Positions 1 to 5,631 of a DNA stretch of 64,000 nt are shown in pieces. The stretch lies in the NCBI RefSeq assembly GCF_003368325.1, contig NZ_CP031467.1, positions 3,596,001 to 3,660,000 on the forward strand, read 5' to 3'. Position numbers and translations under genes: made by a program. Origin of the DNA: Paraburkholderia caffeinilytica. GTDB lineage: Bacteria; Pseudomonadota; Gammaproteobacteria; Burkholderiales; Burkholderiaceae. The notes under the pieces are model-generated. The model saw nothing but the letters and a program-made list of their open reading frames with translations, was not told the origin of the DNA and ran no database searches. How positions within the stretch are numbered: position 1 is the stretch's first letter; each line of letters starts with the position of its first letter.

Positions 1-964
1 CTACGTCGTCGGCGTCGAAACGATGGCGCGCCTCGGTCTGGCACTCGGCAGCCGGCACTACGAGCAGGGTTTCCATAACACCGCCACGTTGGGCACGCTC
101 GGCGCGGCGGCTGCCGCGTCGTATCTGCTGAAGCTCGATGCCGGCGCCATCGAGAACGCGCTGGGTCTTGCCGCCACGCAATCAGCCGGCTTACGCCTGC
201 AATTCGGCAGCGAAGCGAAACCCTTGCATGCCGGGCTCGCCGCCCGCGCCGGCCTGTTCGCCGCCGAACTCGCGGCGGCGGGACTGCAGGGCTCGCCTGA
301 AGCACTGGACGGGCCGGTCGGTTTTTTCGCCGTGTTCAGCGGCGGCGCCGCGCAACCCGAACGCGTGCTGGAAGGCTGGGGCGCGCCCTGGCAAATCGTG
401 GCGCCGGGTCTGTACTTCAAGCCGTGGGCGTGCTGCACGGCGACGCACTACGCCGTGCATGCCGCATTGACATTGCGAGACACACACCGGCTCACACCCG
501 ACGACATCGCCGGCGTGACGGTGACCTTTCCACCCGGCGGCGACACACCGCTTGCCCGACATTTGCCTTCGACCGGACTCGAGGCGCGTTTCAGCGTTGC
601 CTACGCGGTCGCCGCCGCGCTGACGGATGGTTCGCCCGGCGTCGCCATCTTCGCGGATAGTCCGGTGCGCGAGGACCTGATTGCGCTCGCCGGGCGCGTG
701 ACAAGCCGTCACGATGAAACCGCGGCGCGCGCGTCGACCGATCCGGCCACGCGTTTCTCGACTGTCGAGATCGCATTGCGCAACGGGACGGTGCTGAGCC
801 ATAAGACCGACCGTCTCTACAGCGCGGAAGATCTGCCCGCGAAGTTCGCGGACGCCACCGGCCACGACGCACGCGTCGCGTTTCTCCCCGCGCATATCGA
901 CACCATGCAGAGCAGCGCCGACCTCGCTTCCCTTTTCAATGTCCTCGCATCGATCCACGTATGA
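1..964 (+). CDS. MmgE/PrpD family protein, 5'-truncated by the window edge
   Basis: About 320 residues are visible; the frame is open back to base 2 (preceding residues YVVGVET), so the real start lies upstream. The family (2-methylcitrate dehydratase PrpD, MmgE, and B. subtilis YxeQ) is usually about 450 residues, so roughly the N-terminal third is missing. Family features are the GLAATQSAGLR helix, the HAGLAARAGLFAAELA segment and FKPWACCTATHYAVHA. Members are cytosolic and often act as dehydratases or isomerases on small carboxylic acids. Its stop overlaps the ATG of the next gene (ATGA), so the two are translationally coupled. Neighbouring NtaA-type monooxygenase and amino acid ABC transporter genes suggest a YxeQ-like role in S-(2-succino)cysteine use rather than the methylcitrate cycle; that is inference. 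Confidence 0.85.
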   Translation, partial: YVVGVETMARLGLALGSRHYEQGFHNTATLGTLGAAAAASYLLKLDAGAIENALGLAATQSAGLRLQFGSEAKPLHAGLAARAGLFAAELAAAGLQGSPEALDGPVGFFAVFSGGAAQPERVLEGWGAPWQIVAPGLYFKPWACCTATHYAVHAALTLRDTHRLTPDDIAGVTVTFPPGGDTPLARHLPSTGLEARFSVAYAVAAALTDGSPGVAIFADSPVREDLIALAGRVTSRHDETAARASTDPATRFSTVEIALRNGTVLSHKTDRLYSAEDLPAKFADATGHDARVAFLPAHIDTMQSSADLASLFNVLASIHV

Positions 965-2289
965 GCACGAATAACGGCAGTACCCGCAGGCAGATGCGTC
1001 TCGGGCTCTTCATCCAGGGCGCGGGACATCACGTCGCCGGCTGGCGGCATCCCGACGCGCAGGCGGGCAGCGAGAATCTCGCGCTGATGCAGCGCATCAC
1101 GCAGACCGCCGAGCGCGCGAAGTTCGACATGGTTTTTCTCGCCGACGGCCTCACCAGCGGCCCCGATGCGCATCCGTCGATGGCGATGCGGTTTGAGCCG
1201 CTGTGCCTGCTGTCGGCGCTTGCCATGGGCACGCGCCACATCGGTCTCGCCGCCACCGCGTCGACCACGTATAGCGAGCCGTATCACGTCGCGCGCGCAT
1301 TTGCGTCGCTCGATCATCTGAGCAGCGGACGGGCGGCCTGGAACGTCGTGACGACTTCGTACGATCGCACAGCCGCCAACTTCACACGCGGCAATCATCC
1401 GGATCATGCGCTGCGTTACGAAATGGCGGGTGAATTCGTCGACGTCGTCAAGGGACTGTGGGACAGCTGGGACGACGACGCGGTGCTCAAGGACAAGGCG
1501 CGCGGCGTCTACTTCGATCCCGCCAAGGTCCATACGCTGGACCACCAAGGCCCGTTCTTCGCCGTCAAGGGCCCGTTGAATGCGTCGCGCCCGCCGCAAG
1601 GGCACCCCGTGGTGATTCAGGCCGGCTCGTCCGGACCGGGGCAGGACCTGGCCGCGCGCACGGCGGAAGTGGTGTTTACCGCGCAGCAGACCATTGAAGA
1701 AGCGCAGGTCTTCTATCGCGATCTGAAAGGCCGGTTGCCGAAGTTCGGCCGCGAAGGCGCGCAGTTGCACGTAATGCCGGGCGTGTTTCCTGTCATCAGC
1801 AGGACGGAACAGGAAGCGAAAGACAAATACGCGCAGTTGCAGGAATGGACCGACACATCGGGCGCGCTGTCGCTGTTGTCCGACCGGCTCGGACACGACG
1901 TGTCGAAGTACCCGCTCGATGGTCCGCTGCCGGAGCTGCCCGAGTCGGATCAGTTGAAGAGCCGCGCCAAATTGCTGACCGATCTCGCGCGCCGCGAGAA
2001 TCTGACCTTGCGCGAGCTGTATTACCTGGTGGCCGGCGCGCGTGGGCACCGCATCGTATGGGGTACGCCTGTGCAGGTGGCGGATGCGCTCGAGGAGTGG
2101 TTCACGGGCGAAGCGGCCGACGGCTTCAATATCATGCCGCCGTATTTCCCGGGCGGTCTCGACGACTTCGTCGAACTCGTCGTGCCGGAGTTGCAACGCC
2201 GCGGGTTATTCCGCACGGAATATAGCGGCACCACCTTGCGCGATCATCTCGGCTTGCAGCGGCCGGTTAGCCGCTACGCAGGGCAGTGA
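961..2289 (+). CDS. NtaA/SnaA/DszA-type FMN-dependent monooxygenase (YxeK-like)
   Basis: 442 residues, the normal length for the nitrilotriacetate monooxygenase A branch of the luciferase-like superfamily. The N-terminus MRLGLFIQGAGHHVAGWRHP is typical, followed by AERAKFDMVFLADGL and the SGRAAWNVVTTS segment of the flavin site. PVVIQAGSSGPGQDLAARTAEVVF in the middle and the C-terminal DGFNIMPPYFPGGLDDFVELVVPELQ complete the TIM barrel. These enzymes use reduced FMN from a separate reductase and O2 to break C-N or C-S bonds. No flavin reductase is seen nearby. The start overlaps the preceding MmgE/PrpD gene by 4 bases. Together with that gene and the opposing ABC transporter it matches the YxeK-YxeQ-YxeMNO set of B. 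subtilis; the substrate is inferred. Confidence 0.9.
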   Translation: MSTNNGSTRRQMRLGLFIQGAGHHVAGWRHPDAQAGSENLALMQRITQTAERAKFDMVFLADGLTSGPDAHPSMAMRFEPLCLLSALAMGTRHIGLAATASTTYSEPYHVARAFASLDHLSSGRAAWNVVTTSYDRTAANFTRGNHPDHALRYEMAGEFVDVVKGLWDSWDDDAVLKDKARGVYFDPAKVHTLDHQGPFFAVKGPLNASRPPQGHPVVIQAGSSGPGQDLAARTAEVVFTAQQTIEEAQVFYRDLKGRLPKFGREGAQLHVMPGVFPVISRTEQEAKDKYAQLQEWTDTSGALSLLSDRLGHDVSKYPLDGPLPELPESDQLKSRAKLLTDLARRENLTLRELYYLVAGARGHRIVWGTPVQVADALEEWFTGEAADGFNIMPPYFPGGLDDFVELVVPELQRRGLFRTEYSGTTLRDHLGLQRPVSRYAGQ

Positions 2290-2306
2290 AGCGCGGAAAG
2301 TAAAGC

Positions 2307-2331
2307 GCGGCGTCTGCCAGGCAAACGCCGC
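2307..2331. terminator. Candidate terminator hairpin between convergent genes
   Basis: Arms GCGGCGT and ACGCCGC enclose an inner TGCC/GGCA pairing, 18 bases after the monooxygenase stop and before the ABC ATPase stop. There is no clear T-tract, so it may be a weak or factor-assisted terminator for either strand. Confidence 0.45.
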
Positions 2332-2375
2332 GTCGTTCAGACCTGCATCGGCAGACGCGCCCGAGTGGCTGCCTT

Positions 2376-3245
2376 TCAGATCGCGAAGTGACGCAGATCC
2401 AATGCCAGCGGCGTGCGGGCTGGCGCCGCGCGTGCCGGCTCGGGCGCGGACTGGGTATGCGCCAGAAACTCACGCGTACGCGGACTGAGCGGCGCGCGGA
2501 ACAGCGCGTTGGCCGGACCGTGTTCGACAATCACACCGGCCTCGGTGAAATACACCGCATCGCTTACTTCCTCGGCAAAGCGCATCTCGTGCGTCACGAG
2601 CACGCAGGTCATGCCGTCCTTCACCAGATCGCGGATCACGGTCAGCACTTCGCCCACGGTCTCCGGGTCCAGCGCTGAGGTCACCTCGTCGAACAGGATC
2701 AGATCCGGCTGCATCGCGAGCGCGCGTGCAATCGCCACGCGCTGTTGCTGACCGCCCGACAGTTCACCTGGATACGCATGGGCCTTGTCGGCGAGGCGCA
2801 CCTTCTTCAGCAGATCGTAGGCGGCGCGGGTGGCGCCGGCTTTGTCGCGCCCCAGAATGCGCACGGGCGCGACAACCAGGTTGTCCAATACGCTCAGATG
2901 CGGAAACAGGTTGTATTGCTGGAACACGAAGCCGACGCGCTTGCGCAACTCGATTTCGTCGCGTTCGGAGGCGAGCCGGTCGACCCGGGTGCCGTCGACC
3001 TCGATCTCGCCTTGCTGGGGGCGCAACAATCCGGTGATGCAGCGCAGAATCGTCGACTTGCCCGACCCGGAGGGTCCGATGATCGACACGGCCTGCCCGC
3101 GGAACACGTCGAGATCGATGCCCTTGAGGACCGGCGTCGAGCCGAACGACAGATGCACGTCGCGCAACCGGACCAGGGGGCGCACGGCCGCTGCGGCGGC
3201 TGCAGGTGCGGATGCGGATGCGAGCGGGACATCAACTGAAAGCAT
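2376..3245 (-). CDS. Polar amino acid ABC transporter, ATP-binding protein
   Basis: 289 residues. Walker A GPSGSGKST (57-65), Q-loop region FVFQQYNLFPH (about 106-116), signature LSGGQQQR (162-169) and Walker B LILFDE (182-187) are all intact. The fold matches the GlnQ/HisP/YxeO class that energises uptake of polar amino acids. The first 22 residues are an Ala-rich extension absent from most homologues. The start overlaps the upstream permease gene by 14 bases, and the gene is last in the order binding protein, permease, permease, ATPase. Cystine, S-substituted cysteine or another amino acid is likely; specificity cannot be read from the ATPase. Confidence 0.93.
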   Translation of the reverse strand: MLSVDVPLASASAPAAAAAAVRPLVRLRDVHLSFGSTPVLKGIDLDVFRGQAVSIIGPSGSGKSTILRCITGLLRPQQGEIEVDGTRVDRLASERDEIELRKRVGFVFQQYNLFPHLSVLDNLVVAPVRILGRDKAGATRAAYDLLKKVRLADKAHAYPGELSGGQQQRVAIARALAMQPDLILFDEVTSALDPETVGEVLTVIRDLVKDGMTCVLVTHEMRFAEEVSDAVYFTEAGVIVEHGPANALFRAPLSPRTREFLAHTQSAPEPARAAPARTPLALDLRHFAI

Positions 3246-4038
3246 AGCGTTTCTCGAGAAGACGGGTGAAGCGCGCGATCGGGTAGCAGTAAGCGAAGAA
3301 CAACCCGAGCACAGTGAAATAGACGGCGACCGTGAAATCCGCCCGCGCCACGGTATTGCTCGCCACCTGCGCGGTGTCCAGCAGATCGTGCACCCCCACC
3401 AGCGAGGCGAGCGCGGTTGCCATCGTGATGCTGGCGTACAGGTTCATCCACGGCGGCAGCATCCGCTTCACGCATTGCGGCAGGATGATCCAGCGGAACA
3501 CCTGGGTTCGGCTGAATGCAAGCGAACGTGCCGCGTCCCACTGCGCGTGAGGGATCGACTGGACGGCGCCGCGGAAGATCTCGGCGAAGTTGGCGCTGGC
3601 AGGCAACGCGAGACCGAGCGTGACCTTGAACCAGTCGGGAAACGGCACGATGTGGTGGCCGAGCGCGATTTCGAACGGGAACACGTAGGTCGAGAAATAG
3701 ATCAGCACGAGTAGAGGGGCGTTTCGGAACACCTGCACGTAGCCGCGCGCAATCAGACGCACGCCGCGGATCGGCGACAGCAGCAAGGGGCCGAGCACGA
3801 GGCCGGCGAGTGTGCCGAGCGCGATGGCCAGCAGGCTGATTTCGATGTTGACCCACAGGGACTTGCCGAGCGCCGGCGCCCACGTGATGAGCGCCGCGAG
3901 CGCGGGATAGCTTGGACCATGAGCGATCTCGTGTTCGGCGAGAGCGAGCAGGGCGGCGACGCCGACCACGCCGGCAAGCGCAAAAGCGGAACGGTAGCGT
4001 CCGTCCTGCGTGGATACGGTGATGGATTCAGTGGCCAT
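3232..4038 (-). CDS. Polar amino acid ABC transporter permease (second)
   Basis: 268 residues of the HisM/GlnP family. Hydrophobic segments include FALAGVVGVAALLALA near the N-terminus and LWVNIEISLLAIALGTLAGLVLG. The permease-ATPase coupling (EAA) loop reads EIFRGAVQSIPHAQWDAARSLAFS. It overlaps the preceding permease by 11 bases and the following ATPase by 14, so the four genes form one operon. It probably forms a heterodimer with the neighbouring permease in the inner membrane. Confidence 0.92.
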   Translation of the reverse strand: MATESITVSTQDGRYRSAFALAGVVGVAALLALAEHEIAHGPSYPALAALITWAPALGKSLWVNIEISLLAIALGTLAGLVLGPLLLSPIRGVRLIARGYVQVFRNAPLLVLIYFSTYVFPFEIALGHHIVPFPDWFKVTLGLALPASANFAEIFRGAVQSIPHAQWDAARSLAFSRTQVFRWIILPQCVKRMLPPWMNLYASITMATALASLVGVHDLLDTAQVASNTVARADFTVAVYFTVLGLFFAYCYPIARFTRLLEKRYAFS

Positions 4039-4789
4039 AGCCGGGCATCCTCAGGCGGACTTCGAGCCAGCGTCCCGCGCGATTGATCGCAAAGGTCAGT
4101 GCGCCGAAGAACAGCAGGATCAGGATCATCAGCTCGAGCACATTGTCGCGCTGCGTCCAGATCATGATCGATGCATACGTGATGTCGCCGACCGCGATCG
4201 CCGAGGCGACGGTGGTCATCTTCACGAGGTCGACCATGTTGTTGACGAGCGCCGGGAGGGCAAAGCGCAGCGCGAGCGGCAACTGCACGCTCCAAAGGCG
4301 CTGGCGGCGGCTGAAACCGAGCGACTGTGCCGCTTCGAGCGTGGTGCGCGGCACCGCTTCGATACCGGCGCGCAGCGCTTCGGCATGAAACGCGCCCTTG
4401 TGCAGCGAAATCACGATCGCGCTCCAGATGAACGGCGTCAGCGGATTGCCGCCCAGATTGCGCAGTGCCTCGCTGAGCAGCATATTGATCACCAGAAAGG
4501 CGCAGAACAGTTGCACGAGCGTCGGCGTATTGCGCGTGATCTCGACGAACACGCGAGCCGGGCGCGCGAGCGCCGGACGCGGTGAGGTGAGCAGCGCCGC
4601 CAGCACGATGCCGGCGACGAGGCTGCCGATTATCGTGACGAGCGACAGTTCGAGCGTGACCAGCATGCCGTGCAGGAACGACGCAAGTTCGTCGGGCGCG
4701 AGCACGAAACCGTAGTTCAGCCCGATCTTGCCGATCGCATTCACCACGACCCCGGCGGCGCGCGAGAGCGCTTCAGTCGATGCGCTCAT
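4028..4789 (-). CDS. Polar amino acid ABC transporter permease (first)
   Basis: 253 residues of the HisQ/GlnP family. The membrane segments include LHGMLVTLELSLVTIIGSLVAGIVLAAL (quoted in part) and the coupling loop is EALRAGIEAVPRTTLEAAQSLGFS. The end of the protein is polar and Arg-rich. The start overlaps the stop of the substrate-binding gene by 4 bases and the end overlaps the second permease by 11 bases, indicating translational coupling. Confidence 0.92.
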   Translation of the reverse strand: MSASTEALSRAAGVVVNAIGKIGLNYGFVLAPDELASFLHGMLVTLELSLVTIIGSLVAGIVLAALLTSPRPALARPARVFVEITRNTPTLVQLFCAFLVINMLLSEALRNLGGNPLTPFIWSAIVISLHKGAFHAEALRAGIEAVPRTTLEAAQSLGFSRRQRLWSVQLPLALRFALPALVNNMVDLVKMTTVASAIAVGDITYASIMIWTQRDNVLELMILILLFFGALTFAINRAGRWLEVRLRMPGYGH

Positions 4790-5631
4790 GCACCTTGCGC
4801 CTTGTACTTCGCGTGCAGATCGAGCACGGCTTGCGAGGGCTGCATGCCGTTCTTGCGCTCGGTGTCGATCAGCCAGCCGCTGCGGTGCCAGTCCTGGACG
4901 ATTTTTTCGAGCGCGCTTTGCGTATCCGTTTCACCCTTGCGAACCCAGATCACGGACGGCGACGGAATCAGCTCGTTCGATACGGGAATCGTGTAATCCT
5001 TCCAGTCCGGATTGCGCGCGACGAGCAGCCGCAGCGTGGGGGCGACGTGAACCGCGGCGACGCAGTTATTGCCGCGCAGCGCGAGCAGCGACTCCGGCTG
5101 GCCGCGAAATGCCTTGACCTGGGCGCCATATTCCTCGGCGAGCGGCTTCGTATAGTTGCTGCCCTGCGAGACGCACACGGGCTTGCCGCGCACGTCGTTC
5201 CACGTCTTGATGCCGCTGTCCTTGCGGGTGATGAGCGCGCCGCCGATTTCCTCGAACGGCGTGGGCGGATAGGAGAGGATCTCCGCGCGTTCTTTAGTGA
5301 GTTCCATGTTGGCGATCAGCGCATCGACCTTGCCTTGCTGCAGGAACTGCACGCGGTTCGACGGCTGGACCGGCGTCAATTCCACGTCGACGCCGAGGCG
5401 CTTCGCGACGTCGTTTGCGAGATCGACGTTGAAGCCGAGCGGTTTCTGGGTGGCCGGGTCCAGCGAGCCGAACGGCGGCCCCGACAGGATCACGCCGATG
5501 ACGATCTTGTGGCGTTGATGAATCCGCTCGAGTGTGGTGTCGGCGTGGGCGGCACTGGCGCCCAATGCTGCAAGGAGAGTCACGGCGCGCAATGCGCGCT
5601 GAAGGGCGGGGCGGGTCGGTCGGCTGAACAT
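4786..5631 (-). CDS. Amino acid ABC transporter periplasmic substrate-binding protein
   Basis: 281 residues from the ATG at 5631. That start gives a clear Sec signal peptide (MFSRPTRPALQRALRAVTLL then a hydrophobic core ending ASAAHA), so the longer TTG frame starting at 5787 is unlikely. The mature part is a family 3 periplasmic solute-binding protein (SBP_bac_3): KIVIGVILSGPPFG, KPLGFNVDLANDVAKRLGV, VDALIANMELTKERAEILSYP and the hinge region KPVCVSQGSNYTKPLAEEYG. It is the first gene of the ABC operon. Ligand identity is unknown; the neighbouring YxeK/YxeQ-like genes make S-(2-succino)cysteine or a related S-substituted cysteine a reasonable candidate. No strong Shine-Dalgarno sequence is visible. 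Confidence 0.88.
   Translation of the reverse strand: MFSRPTRPALQRALRAVTLLAALGASAAHADTTLERIHQRHKIVIGVILSGPPFGSLDPATQKPLGFNVDLANDVAKRLGVDVELTPVQPSNRVQFLQQGKVDALIANMELTKERAEILSYPPTPFEEIGGALITRKDSGIKTWNDVRGKPVCVSQGSNYTKPLAEEYGAQVKAFRGQPESLLALRGNNCVAAVHVAPTLRLLVARNPDWKDYTIPVSNELIPSPSVIWVRKGETDTQSALEKIVQDWHRSGWLIDTERKNGMQPSQAVLDLHAKYKAQGA

What the first reader, a model, noticed from the sequence alone, without database searches (positions are those of the whole stretch)
1..5631. yxe-like sulfur module: YxeQ-type and YxeK-type enzymes facing a YxeMNO-type transporter
Seen: an MmgE/PrpD protein and an NtaA-type monooxygenase (4-base overlap) converge on a substrate-binding protein, two permeases and an ATPase of the polar amino acid class. 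Known: in B. subtilis the yxeKLMNOPQ operon contains the same three families and supports disposal of S-(2-succino)cysteine. Inference: this window edge encodes a proteobacterial version. The YxeL (acetyltransferase) and YxeP (deacylase) counterparts would be expected upstream of base 1.
Basis: partly seen in the sequence, partly recalled or inferred. Interest (0 to 1): 0.7.

Follow-up and report, generated by a model that had tools for sequence, protein, structure and literature searches.

The report
Six-gene salvage set for fumarate-capped thiols
This soil bacterium and relatives of it carry a compact six-gene set, related to a known Bacillus pathway but without two of its enzymes, that is predicted to import sulfur compounds capped by fumarate and would free their sulfur, with one long-unexplained protein likely flipping the molecule's handedness so that the next enzyme can cut it.

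Summary
In detail: an MmgE/PrpD gene and an NtaA-family monooxygenase (4-base overlap) converge on a polar-amino-acid-type importer. The genome continues left of base 1, but no GNAT or M20 gene is there, so that prediction fails. The kinship holds: the MmgE/PrpD protein lies in one clade with YxeQ (100/100), and the monooxygenase (57% identical to YxeK) groups with YxeK and CmoJ. With three of five components the unit meets the published definition of a yxe locus, yet none of 38 such loci outside Firmicutes shows a YxeL-type acetyltransferase in the DNA held, against 12 of 15 in Firmicutes. It is a new variant of a known kind. I identify the crystallised 'B. subtilis IRG1' (7BRA) as YxeQ, whose function is stated as unknown in print. 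YxeQ and the window protein keep the His/Tyr pair and the arginine of iminodisuccinate epimerase, and YxeQ stays when a lyase replaces the monooxygenase. I therefore predict that it epimerises the succinyl carbon of S-(2-succino) compounds. Substrate and epimerase role are inference; nothing was assayed, and the monooxygenase tree does not make YxeK its exclusive sister.

The parts
1..964 (+). YxeQ-type MmgE/PrpD gene, 3' part (residues 148-467 of 467; the gene starts 440 bases left of base 1)
   Evidence: PF03972/PF19305; 41% to B. mojavensis YxeQ; YxeQ clade 100/100
59..61 (+). Tyr167 codon, predicted second acid/base residue (Y146 of 7BRA, Y145 of IDS epimerase); its partner His121 lies left of base 1
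   Evidence: residue roles from passages of PMC7347537
961..2289 (+). YxeK/CmoJ-type FMN-dependent monooxygenase (TIGR03860), 442 aa
1171..1173 (+). His71 codon, shared with YxeK (7 of 7) and the window clade (18 of 18), His in 1 of 26 other Burkholderiales relatives and 0 of 3 CmoJ-type rows
2306..2332 (-). Terminator-like hairpin (12 pairs, 9 G-C) in the 86-base gap between the converging genes
   Evidence: 1 found, shuffles mean 0.1; a consensus match only
2376..3245 (-). ABC importer ATPase (GlnQ/TcyN class)
3232..4038 (-). ABC importer permease 1
4028..4789 (-). ABC importer permease 2
4786..5631 (-). Family 3 substrate-binding protein with an N-terminal stretch that looks like a signal peptide (judged by eye)

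Best explanation
The left edge of the window holds a six-gene unit (importer, YxeQ-type MmgE/PrpD protein, YxeK/CmoJ-type flavin monooxygenase) that is predicted to take up S-(2-succino) thioethers, would interconvert the two stereoisomers at their succinyl carbon, and likely cuts the C-S bond to give a thiol and oxaloacetate. Shown by calls: the gene set and its order, its kinship to YxeQ and to the YxeK/CmoJ group, and the regular absence of a YxeL-type acetyltransferase beside it. Inferred: (1) import of an S-(2-succino) compound; (2) C2 epimerisation by the YxeQ-type protein with His121 and Tyr167 as acid/base pair, through an enolate, as proposed in print for iminodisuccinate epimerase and methylsuccinate isomerase; (3) oxygenolytic C-S cleavage with FMNH2 from an unlinked reductase, as published for YxeK. 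Because YxeL and YxeP are missing, the substrate likely arrives N-acetylated or has no amino group, or unlinked enzymes handle the acetyl group.
For: YxeQ clade 100/100; YxeK+CmoJ+window group 97/99 and 57% identity to YxeK; His71 shared with YxeK. Three of the five components of the published yxe definition are present (PMC9706529). Seven active-site residues plus Arg100 are shared by window, 7BRA and IDS epimerase; Arg100 occurs in 15 of 15 Firmicutes and 20 of 23 module rows but 2 of 20 other MmgE/PrpD rows. YxeQ stays with YxeK (8 of 15 Firmicutes loci) or with a 2SL-like lyase (4 of 15); starting from YxeL instead, YxeQ is in 8 of 10 newly fetched Bacilli loci and a YxeP at 59% or more in 4. 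ATPase-YxeQ fusion proteins exist. 38 of 38 module loci have all six genes, 13 of 13 congeners too.
Against: No assay. The monooxygenase tree puts YxeK with CmoJ (91/65), not exclusively with the window clade; an exclusive YxeK+window clade is not rejected (p-AU 0.108) but not shown. 26 other Burkholderiales enzymes are 47-60% identical to the window's, and the 14 stretches fetched around such genes have no YxeQ-type gene, so 57% to YxeK is not special. YxeK is reported to prefer the N-acetylated substrate strongly (PMC9706529), yet no YxeL is present. Three module rows (Inquilinus group) have Gly for Arg100; the other seven residues occur in 20 of 20 other MmgE/PrpD rows and do not discriminate. 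Two of 10 YxeL-found loci lack YxeQ, and 3 of 15 Firmicutes YxeQ loci show neither YxeK nor a 2SL-like lyase in the DNA held.
Confidence: 0.5

Rival explanations
1. The unit degrades N-(2-succino) compounds (iminodisuccinate, EDDS-like chelators, N-succinyl amino acids): an IDS-epimerase-like protein plus an NtaA/EmoA-like monooxygenase that cuts a C-N bond, for nitrogen or carbon rather than sulfur.
For: IDS epimerase is the closest solved relative of known reaction (229 bits) and acts on an N-succinyl compound; the monooxygenase family is named after nitrilotriacetate monooxygenase.
Against: IDS epimerase lies outside the YxeQ/module clade. The monooxygenase falls with YxeK and CmoJ, which cut C-S bonds, and its fold matches CmoJ and the sulfone enzyme BdsA before EDTA monooxygenase (rank 23).
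Confidence: 0.15
2. The unit is a full 2SC pathway whose acetyltransferase and deacetylase are encoded elsewhere: 2SC enters, is acetylated by an unlinked GNAT protein, cut, and deacetylated by an unlinked M20 protein.
For: The genome has four M20 proteins 37-40% identical to YxeP; B. subtilis itself has three N-acetylcysteine deacetylases that can serve (PMC12757645, abstract in listing and passages). Two of 23 module genomes tested have a strong YxeL-type match elsewhere.
Against: No good YxeL match in the own genome (E 8.7e-6), and 20 of 23 module genomes have none at E 1e-5. Unrelated GNAT proteins were not searched.
Confidence: 0.2
3. The MmgE/PrpD protein is a cis-aconitate decarboxylase or methylcitrate-type dehydratase, as the names 'IRG1' and PrpD suggest.
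For: 7BRA was published as IRG1 (PMC7347537), and the protein family holds both activities (PMC12290011).
Against: Mammalian decarboxylases lack the Tyr (PMC7347537). PMC12290011 says bsIRG1 has no evidence of that activity and did not fall in the decarboxylase clusters. The genome has a separate PrpD far away in the tree. YxeQ persists with oxaloacetate-forming and fumarate-forming partners alike.
Confidence: 0.07

Closest known systems
yxe / scm locus of Bacillus (yxeKLMNOPQ), S-(2-succino)cysteine breakdown
   Same: YxeQ-type protein (same clade), YxeK-like monooxygenase (57%), family 3 amino-acid-type ABC importer; meets the published threshold of three of five components.
   Different: No acetyltransferase, no deacetylase, two permeases instead of one, importer and enzymes on opposite strands in the window's genus (one strand in the Rhizobiales loci).
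2SL variant of the yxe locus (S-(2-succino) lyase)
   Same: Keeps YxeQ while part of the pathway is exchanged.
   Different: There the cleaving enzyme is replaced; here the acetyl-handling enzymes are missing.
Iminodisuccinate epimerase (2HP0/2HP3)
   Same: Fold, seven active-site residues and Arg100; the proposed His/Tyr pair.
   Different: About 30% identity, outside the YxeQ clade; acts on an N-succinyl compound.
(S)-(R)-methylsuccinate isomerase (MmgE/PrpD family, PMC12290011)
   Same: MmgE/PrpD protein shown to change a stereocentre at C2 of a substituted succinate, with a proposed His/Tyr mechanism.
   Different: Sits in itaconate/methylsuccinate clusters; not compared by sequence here.
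CmoJ (YtnJ), alkylcysteine sulfoxide C-S monooxygenase
   Same: Top fold match of the window monooxygenase; cuts a C-S bond of an N-acetylcysteine derivative (PMC10863075).
   Different: 44% identity; acts on sulfoxides made by CmoO; Ile where YxeK and the window enzyme have His71.

Membership tests
yxe locus as defined in PMC9706529 | At least three of five components (YxeK, YxeL, YxeMNO, YxeP, YxeQ) clustered | tested here: met
   K-like, MNO-like and Q present; the definition is quoted
yxe locus as defined in PMC9706529 | YxeK close homologue (>50% identity to the B. subtilis enzyme) | tested here: met
   56.8% to B. mojavensis YxeK (the B. subtilis sequence itself was not at hand)
Three-step 2SC pathway (acetylation, cleavage, deacetylation) | YxeL-type acetyltransferase in the locus | tested here: not met
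Three-step 2SC pathway (acetylation, cleavage, deacetylation) | YxeP-type M20 deacetylase in the locus | tested here: not met
Three-step 2SC pathway (acetylation, cleavage, deacetylation) | Growth on 2SC as sulfur source | not testable with these tools
   Needs an experiment
YxeQ family | One clade with YxeQ apart from IDS epimerase and methylcitrate dehydratase | tested here: met
   40 of 64 rows, support 100/100
YxeK family | Exclusive clade with YxeK | tested here: inconclusive
   Group with YxeK and CmoJ 97/99; YxeK with CmoJ 91/65; p-AU 0.108 for YxeK+window alone
MmgE/PrpD C2 epimerases (IDS epimerase, methylsuccinate isomerase) | Catalytic His and Tyr plus carboxylate-binding residues | tested here: met
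   but shared by 20 of 20 other MmgE/PrpD rows except Arg100
MmgE/PrpD C2 epimerases (IDS epimerase, methylsuccinate isomerase) | Epimerase activity | not testable with these tools
   Needs purified protein
cis-Aconitate decarboxylase | Active site of the mammalian type (no Tyr at the Y146 position) | tested here: not met
   Tyr167 present; absence in mammals from PMC7347537

The most novel reading that the evidence does not exclude
YxeQ, including the crystallised 'B. subtilis IRG1', is the missing S-(2-succino) epimerase of thiol-succination salvage, and the six-gene proteobacterial module is an acetylation-free third form of that salvage: import, epimerise, cut.
Probability: 0.35. Interest if true: 0.75.

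Novelty: new variant of a known kind. Interest (0 to 1): 0.55.

Why it matters
Capping of thiols by fumarate is a known form of metabolite damage, and YxeQ is the one component of its bacterial salvage locus whose function is given as unknown (PMC9706529); separately, a 2025 paper says that bsIRG1 most likely catalyses a different, unknown reaction (PMC12290011). Recognising that these are one protein, with an epimerase-like active site and a place in the locus that does not depend on which cleaving enzyme is present, turns two open questions into one simple assay. The proteobacterial form also asks how acetylation, called critical but unexplained in Bacillus (PMC9706529, Discussion), can be done without.

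Tried and rejected
Rejected: a YxeL- or YxeP-type gene left of base 1. Rejected: the SfnB / DmoA-like / ribose-type importer genes upstream as part of the unit; they lie beside it in only 4 of 13 congeners. Not useful: the missing amino-group Asp in the binding protein as a sign of an N-acylated ligand. That column is Val in the window protein and in 35 of 41 module binding proteins (Asp in 5, Thr in 1) and Ser/Gly/Ala in 12 of 12 YxeM, but three of three other binding proteins of the same genome, not family-checked, lack Asp too; that this Asp holds the ligand's amino group is recalled, not from a call. Not decisive: identity of the monooxygenase to YxeK, since other Burkholderiales enzymes reach the same values. 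The earlier monooxygenase trees had long branches; one search had placed YxeK, the window clade and two others together at 83/83 apart from CmoJ, and with 26 added relatives moved YxeK next to CmoJ with weak support (91/65).

Literature: YxeQ occurs in two held papers: PMC9706529, where it is given as unknown function (passage), and PMC8752978, which I saw only in the listing. Searches for YxeQ/ScmQ/IDS epimerase, iminodisuccinate+epimerase+lyase and succino+epimerase+MmgE (one unrelated paper) gave no paper that makes the epimerase proposal in what I saw. The 2018 JBC paper is not held, and the 2022 FEBS J paper on YxeK was seen only as a reference, so a statement there about YxeQ cannot be excluded. 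PMC9706529: abstract, introduction, passages and the Discussion; PMC12757645, PMC10863075, PMC7347537, PMC12290011: abstracts in listings and passages.
Full report
What is there. The monooxygenase gene overlaps the MmgE/PrpD gene by 4 bases (961-964). The four importer genes on the other strand overlap by 14, 11 and 4 bases, so each side looks like one transcript, and a terminator-like hairpin lies in the 86-base gap between them. The window is G000:C2:3596001-3660000 of an 8.3 Mb genome in three contigs. Loci L052 and L058 (Paraburkholderia sediminicola, P. aspalathi) carry the monooxygenase at 98% identity. Two same-genus genomes sit on contigs of the same lengths as those two records (423732 and 588940), so the genus is Paraburkholderia by inference.

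Left of base 1. The MmgE/PrpD gene is complete in the genome (L009:13561-14964, 467 aa). Upstream come a ribose-type binding protein, a DmoA-like monooxygenase, an SfnB-type oxidoreductase (TIGR04022, 647 bits), a permease and an ATPase of ribose-importer type, a GntR-like regulator (named by eye, no call), an AprA/FrdA-like flavoprotein, a ferredoxin and an aminotransferase-class-V protein that looks like a cysteine desulfurase. Models built from YxeL and YxeP relatives found nothing in L009 or in the window. In the whole genome the best YxeL match is E 8.7e-6, 31% over 103 residues, on another contig. Four of seven M20 matches are 37-40% identical to YxeP, the nearest about 135 kb away.

Kinship of the MmgE/PrpD protein. 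Its best solved relatives are 7BRA 'B. subtilis IRG1' (337 bits), IDS epimerase (229) and mammalian cis-aconitate decarboxylase (131). A scan of named genomes with an alignment led by the 7BRA segment kept the best 80 of 492 confirmed places: 15 Firmicutes loci, 38 others with the six-gene module, 27 with more distant MmgE/PrpD genes. L032 (B. mojavensis) is a complete yxeKLMNOPQ operon whose last gene is 86% identical to the 7BRA segment. So the crystallised bsIRG1 is YxeQ; the name YxeQ is not in the 2020 structure paper nor in the 2025 paper that calls its reaction unknown. In a tree of 64 rows (27 locus ids were taken out beforehand to thin relatives) YxeQ and the module proteins form one clade of 40 rows at 100/100; IDS epimerase lies outside, the genome's own PrpD far away.

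Active site. Residues named for bsIRG1 in passages of PMC7347537 (D91, R100, H102, Y146, H151, K200, K266, C271) were mapped on the 64-row alignment; the lysine called K200 there is one residue off by my count. All eight are present in the window protein, 7BRA and IDS epimerase. Arg100 is present in 15 of 15 Firmicutes rows and 20 of 23 module rows (Gly in 3), in 2 of 20 other MmgE/PrpD rows, in neither of two rows of the genome's second MmgE type, and not in PrpD; the other seven are present in 20 of 20 other rows and so do not discriminate. H99 and Y145 of IDS epimerase are the proposed two bases, and mammalian decarboxylases lack the Tyr (PMC7347537). PMC12290011 reports that three MmgE/PrpD proteins isomerise methylsuccinate and proposes a shared C2 proton transfer for the family (passages). 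A model of P0124 (92% identical to the window protein; mean pLDDT 91.0) matches 7BRA, then IDS epimerase, then mammalian decarboxylases, then methylcitrate dehydratases.

Kinship of the monooxygenase. It is 57% identical to B. mojavensis YxeK, 48% to 3sdo, 44% to CmoJ and 42% to DszA over aligned columns. In the broadest tree (57 rows) the window clade (18 rows, 100/100), the YxeK clade (7 rows) and CmoJ/3sdo/an own paralogue (3 rows) form a group at 97/99 against 26 other Burkholderiales relatives; YxeK joins CmoJ at 91/65. A YxeK + window clade is not rejected (p-AU 0.108). His71 is fixed in both clades and found in 1 of 26 and 0 of 3 of the others; it sits in a loop of low model confidence, so its role is open. 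Fold search: CmoJ, 3sdo and BdsA first, EDTA monooxygenase 23rd.

The unit and its limits. 38 of 38 module loci have all six genes: Rhizobiales, Methylobacterium, Comamonas, Burkholderia, Paraburkholderia, Inquilinus and one record labelled Mycobacterium. In 300 genomes of the order, own genome included, 19 had a match to the monooxygenase at E 1e-120; the 26 matches outside the own genome are 48-62% identical by that search, and the 14 stretches fetched around such genes hold no YxeQ-type gene. Locally built models found a YxeL-type protein in 0 of 38 module loci and 12 of 15 Firmicutes loci, and an M20 protein in 5 of 38 (the nearest 1.4 kb from the module, on the other strand, in L080) and 14 of 15. 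Some loci end at contig ends, so 'absent' means in the DNA held. Genome-wide, 3 of 23 module genomes (23 of the 38 were given) had a YxeL-type match at E 1e-5, two of them strong; 4 of 4 Firmicutes controls did. The model is of the YxeL type, so unrelated GNAT proteins may be missed.

Why an epimerase. In the 15 Firmicutes loci YxeQ sits with YxeK in 8, with a 2SL-like lyase in 4 (67-90% identical to the one in L048), and with neither in 3, two of which run into a contig end. That these lyases are 2SL is inferred from place and a motif; no 2SL reference was compared. Those loci had been chosen by YxeQ, so I repeated the test from YxeL: it was found in 11 of 398 Bacilli genomes; in the 10 loci then fetched YxeK is in 10, YxeQ in 8, YxeP at 59% or more in 4. 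A partner that stays while the product changes from oxaloacetate to fumarate and the deacetylase comes and goes likely acts on the shared substrate. That substrate has a stereocentre at the succinyl carbon, and thiol addition to fumarate is not expected to be stereoselective (general chemistry, not from a call; the papers' passages on stereochemistry, do not treat it). IDS epimerase makes such a change at the matching carbon of an N-succinyl compound. ATPase-YxeQ fusions (P0175, P0181, P0185) tie the protein to uptake; P0185 and a window-type monooxygenase (P0042) are both from Aliidongia dinghuensis on contigs of equal length.

Verdict. The unit is a yxe locus by the published definition and a consistent variant without the acetylation arm. 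Function, substrate and the epimerase reaction are untested.

Noticed in passing
L009:6805-13269 (left of the window): SfnB-type oxidoreductase, DmoA-like monooxygenase and a ribose-type importer: a second likely sulfur-acquisition set directly upstream, present beside the unit in only 4 of 13 congeners.
   Followed up: partly
L009:3664-5652 (left of the window): AprA/FrdA-like flavoprotein (NF006131) with a small two-cluster ferredoxin; role unknown.
   Followed up: no
L030 (G000:C2:22001-42000): A second MmgE/PrpD gene with an argininosuccinate-lyase-family gene, importer genes and a polysaccharide-deacetylase-like gene; here the Tyr is Asn and the Asp is Glu, so it is likely not the same reaction.
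   Followed up: partly
P0175, P0181, P0185: Single proteins that join the importer ATPase to the YxeQ-type protein (719-725 aa).
   Followed up: partly
L052:6311-8707 and L058, L177-L180: An extra YxeK-like monooxygenase (57%) between the ribose-type binding protein and the MmgE/PrpD gene, absent in the window's genome; in L052 it is followed by a 279-aa protein without a Pfam match.
   Followed up: partly
L151 (G282:C14:152001-171500): Three YxeK-like monooxygenases (43-57%) within about 14 kb in one congener, with no YxeQ-type gene.
   Followed up: no
L204-L208: Bacilli yxe loci that keep K, L, M, N, O and Q but show no YxeP at 59% or more (L208 has a 37% M20 gene nearby); L201 keeps only K, L and M.
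   Followed up: no
L075: Record labelled Mycobacterium sp. KBS0706 whose module groups with Inquilinus limosus in both trees; the label may be wrong.
   Followed up: no
PDB 7BRA / 7E9D: Named IRG1 (cis-aconitate decarboxylase), but by sequence and operon it is YxeQ; the name is likely a misannotation.
   Followed up: yes
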